DNA of 64,000 nt from Pyrinomonadaceae bacterium (lineage in GTDB: Bacteria > Acidobacteriota > Blastocatellia > Pyrinomonadales > Pyrinomonadaceae): the NCBI GenBank assembly GCA_019694395.1, contig JAIBCC010000001.1, forward strand, positions 248,001 to 312,000. The letters are read 5' to 3'. The translations under genes and the position numbers were made by a program. Below, piece after piece: positions 43,087 through 55,967 of the stretch (positions are counted from its first letter, which is position 1; every line of letters starts with the position of its first letter). Below the pieces are notes generated by a model, which searched no databases, had not been told where the DNA came from, and was given only the letters and a program-made list of their open reading frames with translations.

Positions 43087-43123
43087 AATGTTGAACGGAT
43101 TATTAAAATTTGAGGTTTTGGAT

Positions 43124-43456
43124 ATGCTTTTATCAATTAATGACAAACCATTTATCCCGTTTTTTAGGGTTGAAAAAGGTGCAACCGAGAATATCGAATT
43201 GCTCTCCCCGATTGATAAAAGATTACATCTTAAAGAATTATTCAAATCTCATCATCGTCAAATTTTCAGACTTTGTTTACAAGTCTCAAAAAATCGGGAA
43301 ATTGCCGAAAATTTAACCGTCAATGTTTTTGTGCAATTCTTTCGTGAATTTGACAATTTAGACCGTAAACTTTTGCCTAAAGATTGTTTACGCAAATTAG
43401 CGGTAAGTCATTTAATTGACTACAAATGGCAAAAGCCCCCTGTAATTCAAAAGTAG
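43124..43456 (+). CDS. Truncated sigma-70-like protein (region 2 only)
   Basis: 110 residues from the ATG at 43124, which has GAGG eight bases upstream; an earlier ATG at 43088 lies against the leader helix and lacks a ribosome site. Residues about 37-80 match region 2 of ECF sigma factors: LKELFKSHHRQIFRLCLQVS, KNREIAENLTVNVFVQFFREF (compare 'YRRVFRLALRLTGNREDAEDLTQEVF'). Region 4, needed for -35 recognition, is missing: the protein ends 35 residues later. It may be a core-polymerase-binding modulator, a decayed sigma factor, or an anti-sigma decoy. It lies behind a sigma-54 promoter and structured leader and 61 bp before a secreted protein gene. Confidence 0.6.
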   Translation: MLLSINDKPFIPFFRVEKGATENIELLSPIDKRLHLKELFKSHHRQIFRLCLQVSKNREIAENLTVNVFVQFFREFDNLDRKLLPKDCLRKLAVSHLIDYKWQKPPVIQK

Positions 43457-44200: not shown

Positions 44201-45550
44201 TTAAAATCCTTCCAAAATTACCAAAGCAGTTTCCCCGCCGCCTTGTGTCACGTTGACTAGCGATTTTGAAGAAAGCCGAACCATTCCGCCGTGAACTTTT
44301 CCGCGAAACAGGAAGGGATCAAAATCAATATTGAGCAATTCCATTGAGGCTTCATCGTTAAAAGTCGGCATTTTAACTTTTTCAACCGATACTTTTTCTT
44401 GTGCAACAAAACAATTCTCCAAAGCATTTTCTAAAGCCCTATCCCATTCGGATTCAGTAGTTTCCCAACCCAAAGAAATTCCGTGTCCACCATAATCATC
44501 GTGTGGTTTAAGCGTAAATTTTTCACGCTCACGGCGGAGCAATTCGAGCAAATCAACTTCTTTTCCCTGATAAGTCGTTTTTCCGTCACGCACCCGACGA
44601 GTCCAGGGAATGTGTTTGTTAATCATTTCCAACTGTTCGTTGGTAAAGATCGAAGCGTATTTTTCATCGCTTAAAATAGCAAAACTTGTCTTTTTGTGTG
44701 GAATTTTGACGCGGAAATTATTTGCCATACAGACATTTCCATCAATGTAAGCTTTTGCCAATGGATGAGTTTCATCGAAATGCTCCAAAAACTCGTGGAT
44801 AATGACACGTTTGTAAAAAATATCAACTTCAAAATCTCCAACCCGTAAAATTTTGCCGTCATATTCAAATTCAAAAGGATTGGCAATGATGGTTTGATAA
44901 CCTTGTCCATTCCAAAAATCGCGCAAAATCTCAAACTCTGCGTAAGTTGAAACGCCTTCCCAATCAACAATTGCAATATTCGGTTTTTCTTTTCTGCCGC
45001 CTGTTTCCCGATAGCATAAATCCAGACTTTCCAAGAGTTTGAAATAAGGCTGCGGTCGCCAATGATTATTTTCCGCTAAAAAATTTTGCACTTCGGGAAC
45101 ATCGGCAAAAACTTTTTCAAACGAAATCTGGTCGCCGACTCCGGCAGGCGTTTCGGCGTTATATTCCAAAAATTTAAAATCTTCGCCGCACAAAAAAGTA
45201 TCCAAACGACTCGAAGCACAAAGACTTTGATAACGCGGATTGATTCGCGCCATTCGCTCCTCTTTTTCCGTCAAATTTATCTCCGCTAAAATCTCATTAT
45301 TTTCCAAAGCGGCTTCGGTCATTCGTTCAAACGCCTGATGCAAAATTTCACCCGCTTTTTTGATCTTTTCATAACTTGAACGCGGAAAAAAATGCGGTCT
45401 GAGAAACGGACAAATCGGACGATCATCGTGCAAAATCCCTAAATCTTGTTGAACTTTAGTTAATTTAGCAAAAAGTTCGTTATCGAATTTATGATTTTGG
45501 ATTAAAGCGGCATCTAACTTTTGAATTGATTCATCAAATTTTTGGTTCAT
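44201..45550 (-). CDS. Circularly permuted ATP-grasp family protein
   Basis: 449 residues, without signal peptide or membrane helix. The N-terminal 130 residues are helical; the core shows FKFLEYNAETPAGVGDQISF (about 130-149), IAIVDWEGVSTYAEFEILRD, VDIFYKRV, KPHDDYGGHGI and a C-terminal VHGGMVRLSSKSLVNVTQGG. The order (Asn-Glu-Pro segment early, Lys-containing nucleotide loop late) is that of circularly permuted ATP-grasp enzymes related to glutathionylspermidine synthase and YgiC/YjfC. These make amide bonds from a carboxylate and an amine with ATP. It is divergent from pspA with 200 bp between; a normal ATP-grasp gene lies on the other side, which suggests a joint envelope-stress peptide-ligase system. 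Confidence 0.8.
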   Translation of the reverse strand: MNQKFDESIQKLDAALIQNHKFDNELFAKLTKVQQDLGILHDDRPICPFLRPHFFPRSSYEKIKKAGEILHQAFERMTEAALENNEILAEINLTEKEERMARINPRYQSLCASSRLDTFLCGEDFKFLEYNAETPAGVGDQISFEKVFADVPEVQNFLAENNHWRPQPYFKLLESLDLCYRETGGRKEKPNIAIVDWEGVSTYAEFEILRDFWNGQGYQTIIANPFEFEYDGKILRVGDFEVDIFYKRVIIHEFLEHFDETHPLAKAYIDGNVCMANNFRVKIPHKKTSFAILSDEKYASIFTNEQLEMINKHIPWTRRVRDGKTTYQGKEVDLLELLRREREKFTLKPHDDYGGHGISLGWETTESEWDRALENALENCFVAQEKVSVEKVKMPTFNDEASMELLNIDFDPFLFRGKVHGGMVRLSSKSLVNVTQGGGETALVILEGF

Positions 45551-45656
45551 AGCGAAATTATAAGTGAATTTTGTTCTTTTTTAATTATATTTTTTCTAAA
45601 ACAGTTTTTTGTTTGAATTGTTGCCTTTTTATGCTATTAACTAAACAAATTTTCTT

Positions 45657-45664
45657 GCTATACT
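45657..45664 (+). promoter_or_regulatory. Extended -10 promoter element before pspA
   Basis: TGCTATACT-type extended -10 (TATACT at 45659-45664) with a poor -35 region, about 90 bp upstream of the pspA start. No sigma-54 box was found here, unlike E. coli pspA. Confidence 0.4.
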
Positions 45665-45750
45665 AAGTTGAGAAATTGCAACTTTGTCGGATGTTGTAAC
45701 GTAAAGGTTGATTGCAGTTTTGATTCTGCATAATTGAGGAGTGATAAAAG

Positions 45751-46491
45751 ATGGGATTGTGGCAAAGATTTAAGAGAATTTTTCGGGCGGGAACGGGAGC
45801 CGCTTTGGATAAATTAGAAGATCCGGAAATGGTGCTTCAACAAACTATCCGTGATATGCGTGAGCGTGTGCCGGAACTCAATAATTCAGTCGCGCAAGTA
45901 ATGGCAACCGAACGGCTTTTGGCTAAAAATAAAGAACGGCTTTCAGAAACTGTAGTAGATTTGGATTCTAAGATCAAAGCCGCCGTCAAAATGGGACGTG
46001 ATGATGTGGCAACGGCTTACATTGGTCAACTGCAGCAGGCTCAGGTTGATCTGCAAAAGACCGGAATGCAGCTTGAACACGCGCAGAATGCCTCCAAACA
46101 GGCGATGAAAGCCCGTGACAATTATGTGCTGAATATGCAAAAACGCTCTGCCGAAGCCATGCAGTTGATCAGTGCTTCAAAACAAGCCAAATTGCAGGAA
46201 CAGCTCGCGCAAACGATGGAAACCTTCAATTTGGGTGACGATTCATCAACCTTTAATGAAATGCGTGAAAAAATTGACCGCAGAGTTGCCGCTGCCGAAG
46301 CCAAACTTCAACTTGGCTCGTCAAATGTTGATGCTCAAATGCAGGACATCGAACGTGAAGCACAGGAAATGCAGCTACAGGACAAATTGTTGGAATACAA
46401 AATGAATATGGGTTTACTCGGCGGAGGCTCAAGTTCGGTTAATAACCAATTAAATGCGGGTGTTCCAGAAACCGGGAGTGAAAATAACTAA
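45751..46491 (+). CDS. pspA: PspA/IM30 family phage-shock protein
   Basis: 246 residues, nearly all helix. The N-terminal GLWQRFKRIFRAGTGAALDK amphipathic segment (membrane binding) and the LEDPEMVLQQTIRDMRERV motif (22-41) identify PspA/Vipp1. Long coiled-coil heptads follow, and AAAEAKLQLGSS near 190. PspA forms ESCRT-III-like rods and rings that stabilise the inner membrane during envelope stress. The C-terminal tail is short, Gly/Ser/Asn-rich. GAGG-type sequence precedes the ATG. It is followed by a membrane coiled-coil gene and then an ATP-grasp ligase; another ATP-grasp gene is divergent upstream. Confidence 0.93.
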   Translation: MGLWQRFKRIFRAGTGAALDKLEDPEMVLQQTIRDMRERVPELNNSVAQVMATERLLAKNKERLSETVVDLDSKIKAAVKMGRDDVATAYIGQLQQAQVDLQKTGMQLEHAQNASKQAMKARDNYVLNMQKRSAEAMQLISASKQAKLQEQLAQTMETFNLGDDSSTFNEMREKIDRRVAAAEAKLQLGSSNVDAQMQDIEREAQEMQLQDKLLEYKMNMGLLGGGSSSVNNQLNAGVPETGSENN

Positions 46492-46624
46492 GGGCAAATT
46501 ACCTGATCCTCACACGCTTTTACCTAAGCTATGATGGTTAAATGTTTTTTTGAAAAATGAATGATTTTACGGTTGAGCATTCGAGAGCAGAGTTAGCAAA
46601 ATTTAAAGAGCAAAAATAGTTTTT

Positions 46625-47476
46625 ATGGCAGATTTAGCAAAATATTCACAGGAAATTAGCAAATACAACACCAAATACGTCAAAGAAGCCGTTAAAGAGC
46701 CGGTCAATTTTTGGGGACTTGCCGGTTTTGCAGTAGCGGCGGCTTATACTCAAAGCGTAATTCCTTTGGCGATTGCTCTCATTTGTGAATTGATTTATAT
46801 GGTGGTAGTTCCTGTGATGCCTGCTTACAAACGCCTGATCAATGCTCGTGAAAAAACTCGTCTCCGTGAACTCAATAAGTCAAACCGTGAACAACTCATT
46901 AGCACTTTCAGTCCGCGTGAACGTGAAGCGGTGCTTTATCTGAAACAGCAAAAAGACAACATCATCAAAAACTACCACAAGTTTACCGGCGCACGCGAGC
47001 TTCCCAAAAATTTGGAAACACTTGAACATCGTTGGGAAGATTTTGTGGATTTGCTCGACATTTACCGCCGCCGCAAACAACATTTGAAATCCATCAATCG
47101 TCAAGCGGTTCATAATCAATTAAGCCAAGCCTATCGTGCCGCAGAAAATGCTCCTGATGAAAAAACGCGGCGCATTCAGCAAACCAATGTTGAAATTCTG
47201 AAACGCCGGATTGCATCCTTTGACGAACTCGAAAAAAGCGTCAAATTGGTTGAAGGGCAATTGCAGTCAATCGAAAACTTCTTTGGTTATTTGAATGACG
47301 AAATCGTGACAATTTCAACTCCCGACAAATTCAATATGCTTGATTTTGAGCAACTTAGCGATTCAATCACGATGACCAAACAAATGCTTGATGCAACTTC
47401 GGATGCAATGGGTGCGCTTGACGCACATAACCGCGCGATGGGAAATTACGAGCTTTTGCCGGAAACCAATCGCTGA
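46625..47476 (+). CDS. Membrane-anchored coiled-coil protein, PspA neighbour
   Basis: 283 residues. Two short hydrophobic segments near the start (about 28-48 NFWGLAGFAVAAAYTQSVIP and 49-68 LAIALICELIYMVVVPVM) form a hairpin anchor; the rest is cytoplasmic and helical with heptads (REREAVLYLKQQKDNIIKNY, LEHRWEDFVDLLDIYRRR, LVEGQLQSIENFFGYL). No catalytic motif. It follows pspA by 130 bp in the same direction, so a membrane receptor or regulator role for PspA is likely, comparable in position to PspB/PspC although not homologous to them by eye. A terminator closes the unit after this gene. Confidence 0.65.
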   Translation: MADLAKYSQEISKYNTKYVKEAVKEPVNFWGLAGFAVAAAYTQSVIPLAIALICELIYMVVVPVMPAYKRLINAREKTRLRELNKSNREQLISTFSPREREAVLYLKQQKDNIIKNYHKFTGARELPKNLETLEHRWEDFVDLLDIYRRRKQHLKSINRQAVHNQLSQAYRAAENAPDEKTRRIQQTNVEILKRRIASFDELEKSVKLVEGQLQSIENFFGYLNDEIVTISTPDKFNMLDFEQLSDSITMTKQMLDATSDAMGALDAHNRAMGNYELLPETNR

Positions 47477-47502
47477 TTCCAAGCAAAATTCAACTAAGTT
47501 TT

Positions 47503-47536
47503 AAGGACAAGAAATTAAAACTCTTGTCCTTTTCTC
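47503..47536 (+). terminator. Intrinsic terminator after the pspA unit
   Basis: Perfect 9-bp stem AAGGACAAG (47503-47511) / CTTGTCCTT (47523-47531), followed by TTTCTCTT. Confidence 0.65.
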
Positions 47537-47640
47537 TTGATACTCGCTTTCTAATAAGTTAAATTACTTGTTTCGACTATTATCGAAAATCAATTCAATA
47601 TATTTAACATTTATTTAAGAAAAGGAAATTTATAAAAACA

Positions 47641-48660
47641 ATGAAAAAAGTTGGAATTTTAGTCGGGCGTGAGCAAACTTTTCCCGAATCAATTATTAAA
47701 AGCATCAATGAAAAAGGTAAGGGCAAAATCGTAGCCGAAATGGTCAAAGTCGGCGGAATCAAAATGGATGAGCCGAAAAAATATGATTTGGTGATTGACC
47801 GTATTTCGCACGAAGTTCCGTATTATCGTGCTACTTTGAAACAAATGGCTCTGCAAGGAACTTACGTTGTCAACAACCCTTTCTGGTGGTCGGCTGACGA
47901 TAAGTTTTTCAATTTCAGTTTAGCTAACAAAATCGGCGTTGCAATTCCGAAAACCGTTCTGTTGCCGCAACACAATTATATTAAAGACATAACCAGCGAA
48001 TCACTCCGCAATCTCGAATTCCCAATCGATTGGCAAGGTGTGATTGACTACGTTGGATTCCCTGCTTTTTTAAAACCACACGACGGCGGCGGTTGGAAAA
48101 ATGTTTCTAAAATTCATTCATTAGAAGAACTTTGGTCAGAATATAATCAATCGGACAAACTCTGTATGACCTTGCAGGAAGGCATCGAATACGATCAATT
48201 TGTTCGTTGCTACTGCGTCGGTCAGGAAAAAGTTTTGATTATGCCGTATGATCCTTCAAAACCGTATCTCTCAGGAATGCAATATGTTAATGTTGATGAC
48301 TATCTCTCGCCCGAATTACACGCCCGGGTTGAAAAGGATGTTATTACCATCTGCAAAGCCTTGGGATATGATCTGAATACAGTCGAATTCGCCATCAAAG
48401 ACGGAATTCCTTATGCCATTGATTTTATGAATCCGGCTCCCGACGCTGAACTTGCTTCGGTTGGTGAAGCAAACCACAACTGGATCGTTAATGCAATGAC
48501 CGAGTTTGTTATCAAAAAATTAAGCGGTGAAACTTCTTTACCGGAATTTAATTGGTCAGGAATGATTAACCCGAACAAAGAAGTAAAAGCACCTTCCAAA
48601 AAATCAACCAAAGTGACGGCAGAAAAGAAACCTGCAACGAAAAAAGCGGTAAGCAAATAA
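47641..48660 (+). CDS. ATP-grasp ligase of unknown substrate
   Basis: 339 residues. KKVGILVGREQTFPESIIKS opens a pre-ATP-grasp domain; then KFFNFSLANKIGVAIPKTVL, the nucleotide-binding GFPAFLKPHDGGGWKNVSKI (Lys and Gly loop) and the metal-binding end AIKDGIPYAIDFMNPAPDAE mark the ATP-grasp core (about 95-280). The tail (300-339) is Lys/Thr-rich, like a nucleic-acid or membrane tether. It should activate a carboxylate as acyl-phosphate and join it to an amine or another nucleophile. It lies downstream of pspA and its membrane partner and is paired by location with the circularly permuted ATP-grasp gene at 44201. Confidence 0.82.
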   Translation: MKKVGILVGREQTFPESIIKSINEKGKGKIVAEMVKVGGIKMDEPKKYDLVIDRISHEVPYYRATLKQMALQGTYVVNNPFWWSADDKFFNFSLANKIGVAIPKTVLLPQHNYIKDITSESLRNLEFPIDWQGVIDYVGFPAFLKPHDGGGWKNVSKIHSLEELWSEYNQSDKLCMTLQEGIEYDQFVRCYCVGQEKVLIMPYDPSKPYLSGMQYVNVDDYLSPELHARVEKDVITICKALGYDLNTVEFAIKDGIPYAIDFMNPAPDAELASVGEANHNWIVNAMTEFVIKKLSGETSLPEFNWSGMINPNKEVKAPSKKSTKVTAEKKPATKKAVSK

Positions 48661-48663
48661 ATT

Positions 48664-48757
48664 TAGGCAAAACGTAAAAGATAAAGGGTAAAGCTAAATC
48701 TCAGAAATATTAGGATTTAGCTTACCCTTTTCTCTTTTCCCTTTTACTTTTCTACGG
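48664..48757. repeat. Hairpin of iterated heptamers between convergent genes
   Basis: GTAAAAG-ATAAAGG-GTAAAGC-TAAATC on the left matches GATTTAGCTTACCCTTTT and further CTTTTCC/CTTTTAC words on the right in reverse complement. It has the same architecture as the repeats at 9066, 12086 and 21170. Confidence 0.6.
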
Positions 48758-49765
48758 AATAATTAATTTTTGACCGGGCTTGATAACATTCGGGTCAGGA
48801 CCAATTACCCCCAAATTTGCTTTGTGAATCACGGTATATTTCATTGGATCGCCATAATATTTTTGGGCAATTTTTGAAAGCCAATCGCCGGGTTGAACAA
48901 CATAAGTTCGTTGACCGCCGCCGTTTCCGGGTTGAATTCCAATTCCTCCATAATTTGGCGTTTGAAAACCGGGATTGGCAGTGACCGGATTTTCTTTTTC
49001 AAGTCGGGCTTTACATTCGGCAAACACAAACCCTAATTTTTCTTTTGTCCAATTTTCTACCCGTTTTGCTCCAGCCTGATCCGCACTTGGCGTAACCAAT
49101 GAAGTTAAAACTTCTCCGGGTTCCCAAATCAAACCGGTTGGATTCGGAATATTTGTAAACGGTAGAACGGACTTTAACCAGGGAGTGCCGCCCATCCCGC
49201 CGTGGGTGGCAAAAAATTTCTCGTGGAGGAAGATCGTGCTGTTGCTTTCCCGCATAAAACCGCAATTACCAAAAGATAATCTGGAATGTGTCGTCCAAAT
49301 ATTTCTTTGCGGATAAATTACCCATTTCACAGTATCGGGAATCGGCGTGTTAAAAATAACATTTCCCCAGTTCCCCCCTTCATTACCAAGCGTATTGGTT
49401 CGATCTACAGCATCAAACAGAATTAAACCTTCGACCGGAATATTTTTGCGGTATTTAAGCCATTTTGAGACTTCTAAAACTGCTGCCGCACCCCGACTGT
49501 AACCACCCAGAAAAACTGCCTTTGCATTATTTTTTTCCCATTGTTCGACTACCCAATCGTATGCTTTTTCGGCTCTGGCACGAGTATCAAAACCACTGGT
49601 AAAAGGTCCGCGCAAATACCAGGTTTTATCGAATTGCGCTTCTTGCCATTCATTTCGCTGCAAACAGTTTACAAAACTATTTTGAAAAGATTTTTGATAA
49701 TCGCCGGGATTTTCTGCTGTTCCTTCTTCGCTTGATGTTCCGTCAATACCTGCAAAAATAATCAT
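48752..49765 (-). CDS. Alpha/beta-hydrolase (DUF2235-like) with C-terminal LysM domain
   Basis: 337 residues. The start IIFAGIDGTSSEEGT resembles the 'FDGTxN' opening of DUF2235 hydrolases, and GGYSRGAAAVLE holds the nucleophile Ser in G-Y-S-R-G. LILFDAVDRT is the strand with a following Asp, and HGGMGGTPW may hold the His. The last 50 residues are a LysM repeat (YVVQPGDWLSKIAQKYYGDP ... IKPGQKLIIP). DUF2235 proteins include type VI lipase effectors (Tle1). No signal peptide is present, so LysM may serve as a loading or targeting module for a secretion machine or for wall attachment after lysis. No secretion genes are in the window. Confidence 0.7.
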   Translation of the reverse strand: MIIFAGIDGTSSEEGTAENPGDYQKSFQNSFVNCLQRNEWQEAQFDKTWYLRGPFTSGFDTRARAEKAYDWVVEQWEKNNAKAVFLGGYSRGAAAVLEVSKWLKYRKNIPVEGLILFDAVDRTNTLGNEGGNWGNVIFNTPIPDTVKWVIYPQRNIWTTHSRLSFGNCGFMRESNSTIFLHEKFFATHGGMGGTPWLKSVLPFTNIPNPTGLIWEPGEVLTSLVTPSADQAGAKRVENWTKEKLGFVFAECKARLEKENPVTANPGFQTPNYGGIGIQPGNGGGQRTYVVQPGDWLSKIAQKYYGDPMKYTVIHKANLGVIGPDPNVIKPGQKLIIP

Positions 49766-53921: not shown

Positions 53922-55967
53922 ATGAGAAAAATTGAATTACCTTTACGCGCTATTGAAACACTTTTTGGTGTCAACGATGCAAACCTTAAATATCTTGAAT
54001 CAATCCTTGCGGTTCAGATTCACGCTCGCGGAAACGATTTAGCAATTGACGGCGAACCAAATGATGTAATTACAGTTGAAAGAATTTTACAGGACTTTTC
54101 CGACCTTTTTAACGAAGGAAACACCTTTACTGACAAAGAATTGCGTGATGCTTTTCGTCAGATAGCCGAAGACCGCACTTATTCTTTCCGTGACCATTTC
54201 ACTAGATCACGATTTAATCCTTCGGGTAAAAAAGCAATTGCGGCAAAAACTGCTACACAGCGCAAATATATCGAAGCAATCCAAGATCACGATTTGACTT
54301 TCGGAATAGGTCCGGCGGGAACCGGCAAAAGTTTTTTGGCAGTGGCAATGGCAGTGCAAGCCCTTTTTAATAAACAGGTTGACCGCATCATTTTAACCCG
54401 TCCGGCAGTTGAAGCAGGTGAAAAACTTGGATTTTTACCCGGAGATTTGCAGGATAAAGTTGATCCGTATCTGCGTCCGCTTTACGATGCTTTGTTTGAT
54501 CTGGTTGATGCCGAAAAAGTAACCAAAATGCTGGAAAAACGGATTATCGAAGTTGCTCCGCTGGCTTTTATGAGGGGCAGAGCGCAATCCTTAGACAGTT
54601 TGTTAATGACTCCGACAGGCTGGCGCAAAATGGGCGAGATTAAAGTTGGTGACGAAGTAATTGGTTCAGACGGAAAACCAACCCAAATTCTCGGCGTTTA
54701 TCCGCAAGGCAAAAAACAAGTTTATCGAGTCACAATGACTGATGGTTCAAGCACAGTTGCTTGTGCTGAACACCTTTGGCAAGTCAAAACTATGGAAGAA
54801 AAACGTCGGAACAAACCCGCCAGAGTTTTGCAAACTCAAGAAATGATTGGTAATTTCCGACGAAATCATCAATACCGATACGAACTTCCTTTGTTATCTG
54901 CGCCTGTTGAGTGGAATTTTGAAGAAGTTCCGATTGAGCCTTATTCATTGGGATTGTTGCTTGGTGATGGATGTATTACAGGTAAAACTTCCCCAAGTTT
55001 TAGCACAACCGACCTTGAATTGGCTGCATCTTTAGAATTTGCTTTGTCGGATTTAAAGGTTTCACTCAAACAAAAAACCAAAATTGATTATGTAATTTCA
55101 AAATCGCCGACTTTTAAAAATGGCGGTTCTGCACCTAATTTGTTAAATGAAGGTTTGCGAAAATTGAATTTACTTGGAACAAATTCGGCAACTAAATTTA
55201 TTCCCAAATCTTATCTTTATAATTCTGCGGAAGTTAGGATTGCAATTTTGCAGGGTTTGTTGGATACAGACGGAGGACCGGTTAAACAAAAAGGGCGAAC
55301 TTGCAGAATTCAATACGCAACTACCTCGGAACAATTAAAAAATGATGTAATCTTTTTGGTTCAATCGCTTGGAGGTGTCGCATATTGGCGCAAACGAAAA
55401 GCCGAAGGAAGAAAACCCGGATTTGCAAATGGTCGTCCCGTTCCTTATAAAAATGACGCATTTACTTTGGATATCCGATTGCCGGAAAATATTGAGCCTT
55501 TTAGATTACAGCGAAAAGCAAACATTTACAGAGAATTTGGTGGTGGTCGTCCGATGCGTTTTATCAAAAATATCGAATTGATCGGCGAAACCGAAACTCA
55601 ATGTATCAGCGTCGCGGCACTTGATTCGCTTTATGTAACAGATGATTTTATCTTGACGCATAACACCCTTAATAACGCTTTTATCATCCTCGACGAAGCC
55701 CAAAACACCACCGGGGAACAGATGAAAATGTTTTTAACCCGCATCGGATTCGGTTCGAGAGTTGTCGTGACAGGCGACATTACGCAAATTGACTTGCCGC
55801 GCGGACAAAAAAGCGGATTAAAAGAAGCAGAGCGTGTGTTAACAGACATTCCTGAAATAGAATTCGTTTATTTCACTAAAAAAGATGTCGTGCGTCATCG
55901 TTTGGTGCAGTTGATTGTCGAGGCTTACGAAGAACAATCAAGTAAAGAGGATGAAAATCAACCGTGA
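53922..55967 (+). CDS. phoH: PhoH-family ATPase interrupted by an in-frame intein
   Basis: 681 codons; the host protein (residues 1-220 plus 582-681, 320 residues) is a normal PhoH-like (YbeZ) ATPase. The N-terminal part (1-100) is the RNA-binding-like extension. Walker A is GPAGTGKS (130-137), the [16 protein letters not shown] block is at 160-175, and Walker [11 protein letters not shown] at 586-595, with [12 protein letters not shown] after it. The intein (221-581) sits between FMRGR and TLNNAF, immediately before Walker B, in the most conserved part. Unless spliced, ATPase function would be lost. PhoH works with YbeY in rRNA and ribosome metabolism; ybeY is four genes downstream in the same operon. 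Confidence 0.95.
54582..55664 (+). mobile_element. Class 3-type intein with LAGLIDADG homing endonuclease, inside phoH
   Basis: 361 residues from Ala221 to Asn581. The Hint N-block is [20 protein letters not shown] and the B block CAEHLWQV (His284, Trp286). The LAGLIDADG motifs are LGLLLGDGC (343-351) and [10 protein letters not shown] (443-452). The F block is [14 protein letters not shown] with Cys561, the G block DDFILTHN, and the first extein residue is Thr582. The N-terminal Ala in place of Cys/Ser, with Trp in block B, Cys at F4 and Thr at +1, is the W-C-T set that defines class 3 inteins, which start splicing through the F-block Cys. The two endonuclease Asp residues are both present, so homing may still be possible. 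Confidence 0.85.

What the first reader, a model, noticed from the sequence alone, without database searches (positions are those of the whole stretch)
44201..48660. PspA and a membrane partner framed by two ATP-grasp ligases
A circularly permuted ATP-grasp gene (divergent) and a canonical one (downstream) flank pspA and a two-helix coiled-coil gene. E. coli yjf genes also join a PspA paralogue with a glutathionylspermidine-synthase-like ATP-grasp, so a peptide or amide modification of envelope parts during stress is a plausible shared theme.
Basis: partly seen in the sequence, partly recalled or inferred. Interest (0 to 1): 0.55.

Follow-up and report, generated by a model that had tools for sequence, protein, structure and literature searches.

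The report
Amide ligases beside a stress gene
Two peptide-bond-making enzymes do sit beside a membrane-stress gene here, but in most related bacteria they live apart from it and beside other ligases, so the neighbourhood is mostly a local arrangement of two separate units rather than a new stress system.

Summary
The four genes are real and correctly placed: A (YjfC/GspS-fold ligase, 44201-45550 -), pspA, C (predicted membrane, helical), D (RimK/Ddl-like ATP-grasp, 47641-48660 +). The grouping is mostly local to one branch of Pyrinomonadaceae (Acidobacteriota). Among 60 relatives, D lies within 10 kb of pspA in 8 of 54 genomes holding both, and A in 4 of 53; D lies near an A-type ligase in 23 of 53 and near a GCS2/YbdK-type ligase in 20 of 51, as operons D>A>GCS2 or D>GCS2 (also in Obscuribacterales). 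The window's A is a divergent paralogue; the operon-type A, GCS2 and a class-I GATase lie elsewhere in the genome. The stable pspA partner is C. pspA here carries an ECF-sigma-like promoter (21 of 22 loci), not found before D (0 of 77) or GCS2 (0 of 22); a terminator-like hairpin separates C from D. I read two units: an ECF-driven PspA-C stress unit, and a dispersed amide-ligase pathway (glutathionylspermidine-like logic, product unknown) whose D gene lies beside pspA in one branch (24 of 29 loci).

The parts
44201..45550 (-). A: YjfC/YgiC/GspS-fold (circularly permuted ATP-grasp) amide ligase; a divergent paralogue of the A of the D-A-GCS2 operons
   Evidence: Pfam GSP_synth and CP_ATPgrasp_2 below cut-off; AlphaFold pLDDT 90.8, YgiC Z 31.0; tree
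45656..45664 (+). extended -10 element (TGnTATACT) upstream of pspA, predicted second promoter
   Evidence: 22 of 22 pspA loci of the branch; position
45678..45703 (+). ECF-sigma-like promoter (GCAACTT-N15-CGTA) of pspA, 47 nt before the ATG
   Evidence: only strict match in the 64-kb window; 21 of 22 pspA loci of the branch; variants in 3 of 3 fetched loci of the family's other branch
45751..46491 (+). pspA (PspA/IM30 family)
   Evidence: PF04012 E 3.2e-28, over cut-off; found in 58 of 60 relatives
46625..47476 (+). C: predicted membrane-anchored helical/coiled-coil protein, constant partner of pspA in the family
   Evidence: follows pspA by 81-265 nt in 24 of 24 named loci with pspA and in L162-L165; hydrophobic residues 32-69
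47503..47531 (+). terminator-like hairpin with T-rich tail between C and D
   Evidence: RNA fold -15 kcal/mol, z -3.8; sequence checked; not listed by the consensus scan, whose loop limit is 8
47641..48660 (+). D: RimK/Ddl-like ATP-grasp amide ligase, core member of the D-A-GCS2 ligase set
   Evidence: in 54 of 60 relatives; operon partners A/GCS2
48683..48731 (.). strong inverted repeat in the convergent D/LysM-gene gap, probably a two-way terminator
   Evidence: region 48655-48755 folds at -27 kcal/mol, z -4.4

Best explanation
Two functionally separate units lie side by side. Unit 1 is pspA-C: PspA with a dedicated predicted membrane partner, transcribed from an ECF-sigma-like promoter plus an extended -10 promoter, i.e. 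an envelope-stress unit of the kind known in Bacillus and Streptomyces. Unit 2 is an amide-ligase pathway of D (ATP-grasp), an operon-type A (GspS/YjfC fold), a GCS2/YbdK-type ligase and, in this family, a class-I GATase; in most relatives these are neighbours of each other and not of pspA. The likely chemistry is stepwise, glutathione-to-glutathionylspermidine-like: GCS2 makes a gamma-glutamyl or similar amide, D adds a second residue, A caps with an amine, the GATase trims or aminates. Shown: gene content, neighbourhoods, paralogy, fold of A, promoter motif. Inferred: that the ligases act in one pathway, the order of reactions, the ECF sigma control. Not known: product and substrates. In one branch of Pyrinomonadaceae the D gene came to lie downstream of pspA-C and, in part of that branch, an A paralogue came to lie divergent from pspA.
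For: Within 10 kb, of genomes holding both, 60 relatives: D-A 23 of 53, D-GCS2 20 of 51, A-GCS2 32 of 52, GCS2-GATase 25 of 46; D-PspA 8 of 54, A-PspA 4 of 53, PspA-GCS2 0 of 51, PspA-GATase 0 of 47. In 99 genomes of the phylum: D-GCS2 12 of 21, all same strand; D-A 10 of 16; D-PspA 2 of 21. Named loci: of 26 with D under 60% identity 25 have A or GCS2 beside D, and 0 of 47 loci outside the branch have PspA. Four genomes (G039, G040, G056, G058) hold a second D-A pair, so the pair travels together. Window A falls in a paralogue clade (21 rows, 99/97) apart from the clade that holds the same genome's other A (L155). GCS2 and GATase of the same genome lie on another contig, about 5 kb apart. pspA promoter motif 21 of 22; upstream of D 0 of 77, GCS2 0 of 22, A 0 of 6 and 0 of 20 by two A queries that may overlap. 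Hairpin between C and D; in 15 of 24 loci C and D are more than 700 nt apart, in several with intervening genes, some on the other strand.
Against: The D-pspA neighbourhood is not random within its branch: 24 of 29 named loci with at least 1.5 kb upstream hold it, across several genera. D and PspA also co-occur by genome (21 of 30 and 29 carriers in 99 genomes, Fisher p 1.4e-8, uncorrected for kinship). In the two published cases of the same flavour (yjf operons) a GspS-like ligase does go with a PspA paralogue. The GATase is never within 10 kb of A or GCS2 outside the family (0 of 13 each), so its membership is weak. Contig ends make all co-location counts lower bounds.
Confidence: 0.7

Rival explanations
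1. A YjfC-YjfJ-like system: in this branch the ligases were recruited to PspA and conjugate a polyamine or amino acid to a peptide, lipid or PspA-linked envelope part during membrane stress.
For: Fold of A closest to YgiC/YjfC, reported to be peptide-spermidine ligases (Pederick 2023, seen only in the reference lists of PMC12568646 and PMC12270671); yjf operons pair such a ligase with a PspA paralogue; A paralogue divergent from pspA by about 200-260 nt in 4 relatives, 7 rows of the tree in all, window included; D next to pspA-C in 24 of 29 loci.
Against: Three of ten members of the window A's own clade are not beside pspA (G005, G013, G017). A paralogue of the same wider clade follows a GCS2 gene in G011 and G027. 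No CesT/Tir, DUF350 or DUF2491 family among the 10 neighbours scanned. No shared promoter motif found; terminator-like hairpin before D.
Confidence: 0.15
2. Pure chance adjacency with no function: D was moved once by rearrangement in the ancestor of the branch and has stayed, because nothing selected against it.
For: Variable C-D gaps from 27 to 6793 nt; intervening genes on either strand; D is flanked by hairpins on both sides.
Against: Retention in 24 of 29 loci, on the same strand in all 8 of the relatives that have it, over genera whose gene order otherwise changes.
Confidence: 0.15

Closest known systems
Escherichia coli YjfC/YgiC and GspS (glutathionylspermidine synthetase family)
   Same: Fold of A over nearly its whole length (Z 29.7-31.0); YjfC is encoded with a PspA paralogue in yjf operons (PMC11237479, passages)
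   Different: 13-16% identity, Pfam GSP_synth below cut-off; no yjf partner genes found around it; its clade is not generally linked to pspA
Linked amidoligase operons (several ATP-grasp and COOH-NH2/GCS2 ligases in one operon; Iyer et al. 2009 as cited in PMC4431377)
   Same: D, A and GCS2 ligases in one operon in other Blastocatellia and Obscuribacterales
   Different: Whether this exact gene set was listed in Iyer et al. 2009 could not be read (not held)
Glutathione/glutathionylspermidine biosynthesis
   Same: A gamma-glutamyl-forming ligase family (GCS2/YbdK), then ATP-grasp ligases, one of the GspS/GSH-synthetase fold
   Different: No GshB family (PF02955) match in this genome; product untested; Acidobacteria are predicted to use bacillithiol (PMC6282198, passages)
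ECF-controlled pspA of Streptomyces (sigmaE) and Bacillus (sigmaW)
   Same: ECF-like -35/-10 promoter ahead of pspA; pspA as sigmaE target and under sigmaW (PMC6767563, passages)
   Different: Sequence GCAACTT-N15-CGTA, here predicted only; sigma factor not identified

Membership tests
GspS/YjfC/YgiC peptide-polyamine ligases (for A) | glutathionylspermidine-synthetase fold | tested here: met
   YgiC Z 31.0, rmsd 3.2, 352 aligned; YjfC Z 30.9, rmsd 3.5, 365 aligned
GspS/YjfC/YgiC peptide-polyamine ligases (for A) | Pfam GSP_synth over gathering score | tested here: not met
   22.6 bits against 29.3
GspS/YjfC/YgiC peptide-polyamine ligases (for A) | ligation of peptide to spermidine | not testable with these tools
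   needs enzyme assay
yjf-type PspA operon | CesT/Tir (DUF2170)-PspA dyad with DUF350, DUF1190 or DUF2491 genes | tested here: not met
   no such Pfam match in the 10 window proteins scanned around pspA
Psp envelope-stress system | PspA_IM30 protein | tested here: met
   99.3 bits against cut-off 33.9
Psp envelope-stress system | stress-type promoter ahead of pspA | tested here: inconclusive
   ECF-like motif conserved 21 of 22; not shown to be a promoter
RimK family (for D) | NCBIfam rimK_fam over cut-off | tested here: not met
   36.8 bits against 143.4
ATP-grasp amide ligase (for D) | ATP-grasp catalytic-type residues (lysines, GGG loop, acidic/Asn metal ligands) | tested here: met
   K88, K145, G149-G151, E249, D261, N264 invariant in 18 rows; role of each residue assigned from recall of the fold
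Linked amidoligase operon | two or more unrelated or distinct amide ligases in one operon | tested here: met
   D>A>GCS2 or D>GCS2 on one strand in relatives; in the window's own genome the set is split
Glutathione pathway | GshB (PF02955) | tested here: not met
   no match in own genome; 21 of 99 phylum genomes

The most novel reading that the evidence does not exclude
Acidobacteriota and Obscuribacterales make an undescribed gamma-glutamyl peptide-amine conjugate with three amide ligases (D, A, GCS2), and in Pyrinomonadaceae this pathway has been tied to an ECF-sigma-driven PspA-C membrane-stress unit, so that a small conjugate takes part in membrane repair, a second origin of the PspA plus GspS-fold pairing seen in E. 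coli yjf genes.
Probability: 0.12. Interest if true: 0.65.

Novelty: new member of a known kind. Interest (0 to 1): 0.3.

Why it matters
It corrects a tempting reading: adjacency to pspA does not make these ligases stress proteins. It leaves two testable things: a widespread acidobacterial three-ligase pathway without a known product, and a specific PspA partner (C) with a conserved ECF-type promoter ahead of pspA, in a phylum for which a major Psp survey that I read in passages does not mention acidobacteria (PMC11237479).

Tried and rejected
Considered a single pspA-C-D operon with A as divergent member: rejected as general explanation because C and D are under 300 nt apart in only 9 of 24 named loci, a terminator-like hairpin lies between them and D leaves pspA outside the branch.

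Considered A and D as a defence system: no PADLOC match for A, D, C or GCS2. Considered glutathione itself: no GshB match in this genome. Looked at second D copies and other contexts for a product hint: neighbours were unrelated to each other (redoxin/TPR, prolyl oligopeptidase, isocitrate-type dehydrogenase, P5C reductase, succinate dehydrogenase); led nowhere. Fold search of C gave no match at E 0.001 or better and a low-confidence model, so no fold is claimed. The sigma-70/terminator consensus scan was no better than shuffles.

Limits. The G-handle genomes and the named loci overlap (the same records under two names, e.g. G023 and L082), so they are not independent samples. Counts of co-location are lower bounds where contigs end. 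Fisher values ignore kinship. In one search, 65 A matches were reduced to 57 rows (matches with stops or identical sequence dropped; matches spanning under 330 query residues were not taken). In one search two of the 24 pspA loci were dropped because they lack 150 nt upstream or the first residue. The promoter motif was read from these same pspA loci, so 21 of 22 is a description; the contrast with other genes is the test.
Full report
Observation. The four genes are present as described. A has the GspS/YjfC fold, pspA is a clear PspA_IM30 protein, C is a helical protein with one long hydrophobic block, D is an ATP-grasp ligase distantly related to RimK and D-Ala-D-Ala ligase. The catalytic-type motifs of A and D are invariant across relatives.

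Do the ligases keep company with pspA? D was found in 54 of 60 relatives, A-type ligases in 55 of 60, PspA in 58 of 60, a GCS2 ligase in 53 of 60 and a class-I GATase in 49 of 60. Of the genomes that hold both members, the two lie within 10 kb as follows: D-A 23 of 53, D-GCS2 20 of 51, A-GCS2 32 of 52, GCS2-GATase 25 of 46, A-GATase 13 of 48, D-GATase 3 of 47, D-PspA 8 of 54, A-PspA 4 of 53, PspA-GCS2 0 of 51, PspA-GATase 0 of 47. Outside the family D is near A in 14 of 18 and near GCS2 in 14 of 18, and near PspA in 0 of 19. In an even draw of 99 genomes of the phylum (tallied) D-GCS2 are near in 12 of 21, always on one strand, D-A in 10 of 16, D-PspA in 2 of 21.

Named loci. The 80 best of 556 relatives of D fall into patterns. 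By D identity of at least 71.5% there are 33 loci; 29 have at least 1.5 kb upstream and 24 of these have pspA-C upstream of D (the five others are L085, L094, whose contig starts inside C, L101, L106 and L111). None of the other 47 loci shows pspA. Of 26 loci with D under 60% identity, 22 have GCS2 and 25 have GCS2 or A beside D; L146 has neither. The three Obscuribacterales loci (L132, L149, L152) all read D>A>GCS2. Terriglobia loci read D>GCS2. In another part of the family the order is GATase, GCS2, A, then D several kb away (for example L107, L118, L119).

The window's A is a paralogue. The same genome has a second A at G000:C79:129461-130792 (L155). In a tree of 57 A proteins the window copy lies in a 21-row clade (support 99/97), and the second copy in another clade with the operon-type A proteins. 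Of the ten rows in the window copy's own clade, seven are divergent from pspA and three are not. Related paralogues follow a GCS2 gene in G011 and G027. The genome's GCS2 ligase and GATase lie on contig C93, about 5 kb apart.

pspA and C. C follows pspA by 81-265 nt in 24 of 24 named loci with pspA, and also in relatives where the ligases are elsewhere: L162, L163, L164 and, at 43% identity, L165; it was not found beside pspA in L166-L168. Upstream of pspA, GCAACTT-N14/15-CGTA occurs in 21 of 22 loci and TGnTATACT in 22 of 22; the family's other branch has close variants in 3 of 3 loci fetched. In the window the strict motif occurs once, 47 nt before the pspA start, against a mean of 0.14 in shuffled windows. 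It was not found in the 300 nt before D (0 of 77), GCS2 (0 of 22) or A (0 of 6 and 0 of 20 by two queries that may overlap). The shape, AAC in the -35 and CGTA/CGTC in the -10, is that of ECF sigma promoters; pspA is a sigmaE target in Streptomyces, with a GGGAAC...CGTCTG promoter, and under sigmaW in Bacillus (PMC6767563, passages). That the motif is an ECF promoter here is inference.

Transcription units. A hairpin with a T-rich tail lies between C and D (47503-47531; -15 kcal/mol, z -3.8) and a stronger inverted repeat after D. C and D are under 300 nt apart in 9 of 24 loci and over 700 nt in 15 of 24, with other genes between them in some, on either strand. So D is probably its own unit.

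Mechanism. The families are those of a stepwise amide pathway: GCS2 matches E. coli YbdK (1r8g, E 3.5e-66) and Pfam GCS2; D is an ATP-grasp ligase; A has the fold of glutathione, homoglutathione and glutathionylspermidine synthetases and of fungal Cp1B; the GATase has a conserved C149, H264 and E266, whose catalytic role is assigned from recall. Linked ligases of this kind often act in turn (PMC4431377, passage). No GshB match exists in this genome, and Acidobacteria are predicted to make bacillithiol (PMC6282198, passages), so a glutathione-like thiol is not assumed. The product is unknown.

Verdict. The proposed PspA link is a feature of one branch of one family. The best reading is two neighbouring units, with recruitment in the branch still possible because the D-pspA neighbourhood is retained in 24 of 29 loci there. 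The yjf parallel is correct for the fold of A and for the literature (PMC11237479, passages), but the genes around it do not otherwise match. Searches for print on this gene set; none listed a paper on these genes in Acidobacteriota. Iyer et al. 2009, the likeliest place, is not held.

Noticed in passing
window 53922-55967 (+): PhoH gene with an intein-like insert at about residues 223-581: LAGLIDADG_3 (E 9.6e-13) and Hint matches inside the PhoH domain; the PhoH of L039 lacks the stretch.
   Followed up: partly
window 43088-43456 (+): Short ORF with only a weak sigma-70 region 2 match (E 0.008), perhaps a remnant of an ECF sigma factor near the pspA locus.
   Followed up: no
window 48752-49765 (-): Alpha/beta-hydrolase-like protein with a C-terminal LysM domain, convergent with D.
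   Followed up: no
L174 (G000:C70:6525-7154, -): A second, more divergent PspA-family gene in the same genome.
   Followed up: no
L191-L194: Four relatives (G039, G040, G056, G058) hold a second D-A ligase pair with unrelated neighbours.
   Followed up: partly
L198 and L170: A gene for a TPR-redoxin protein of about 705 aa lies between two A-type ligases, a possible redox link of the pathway.
   Followed up: partly
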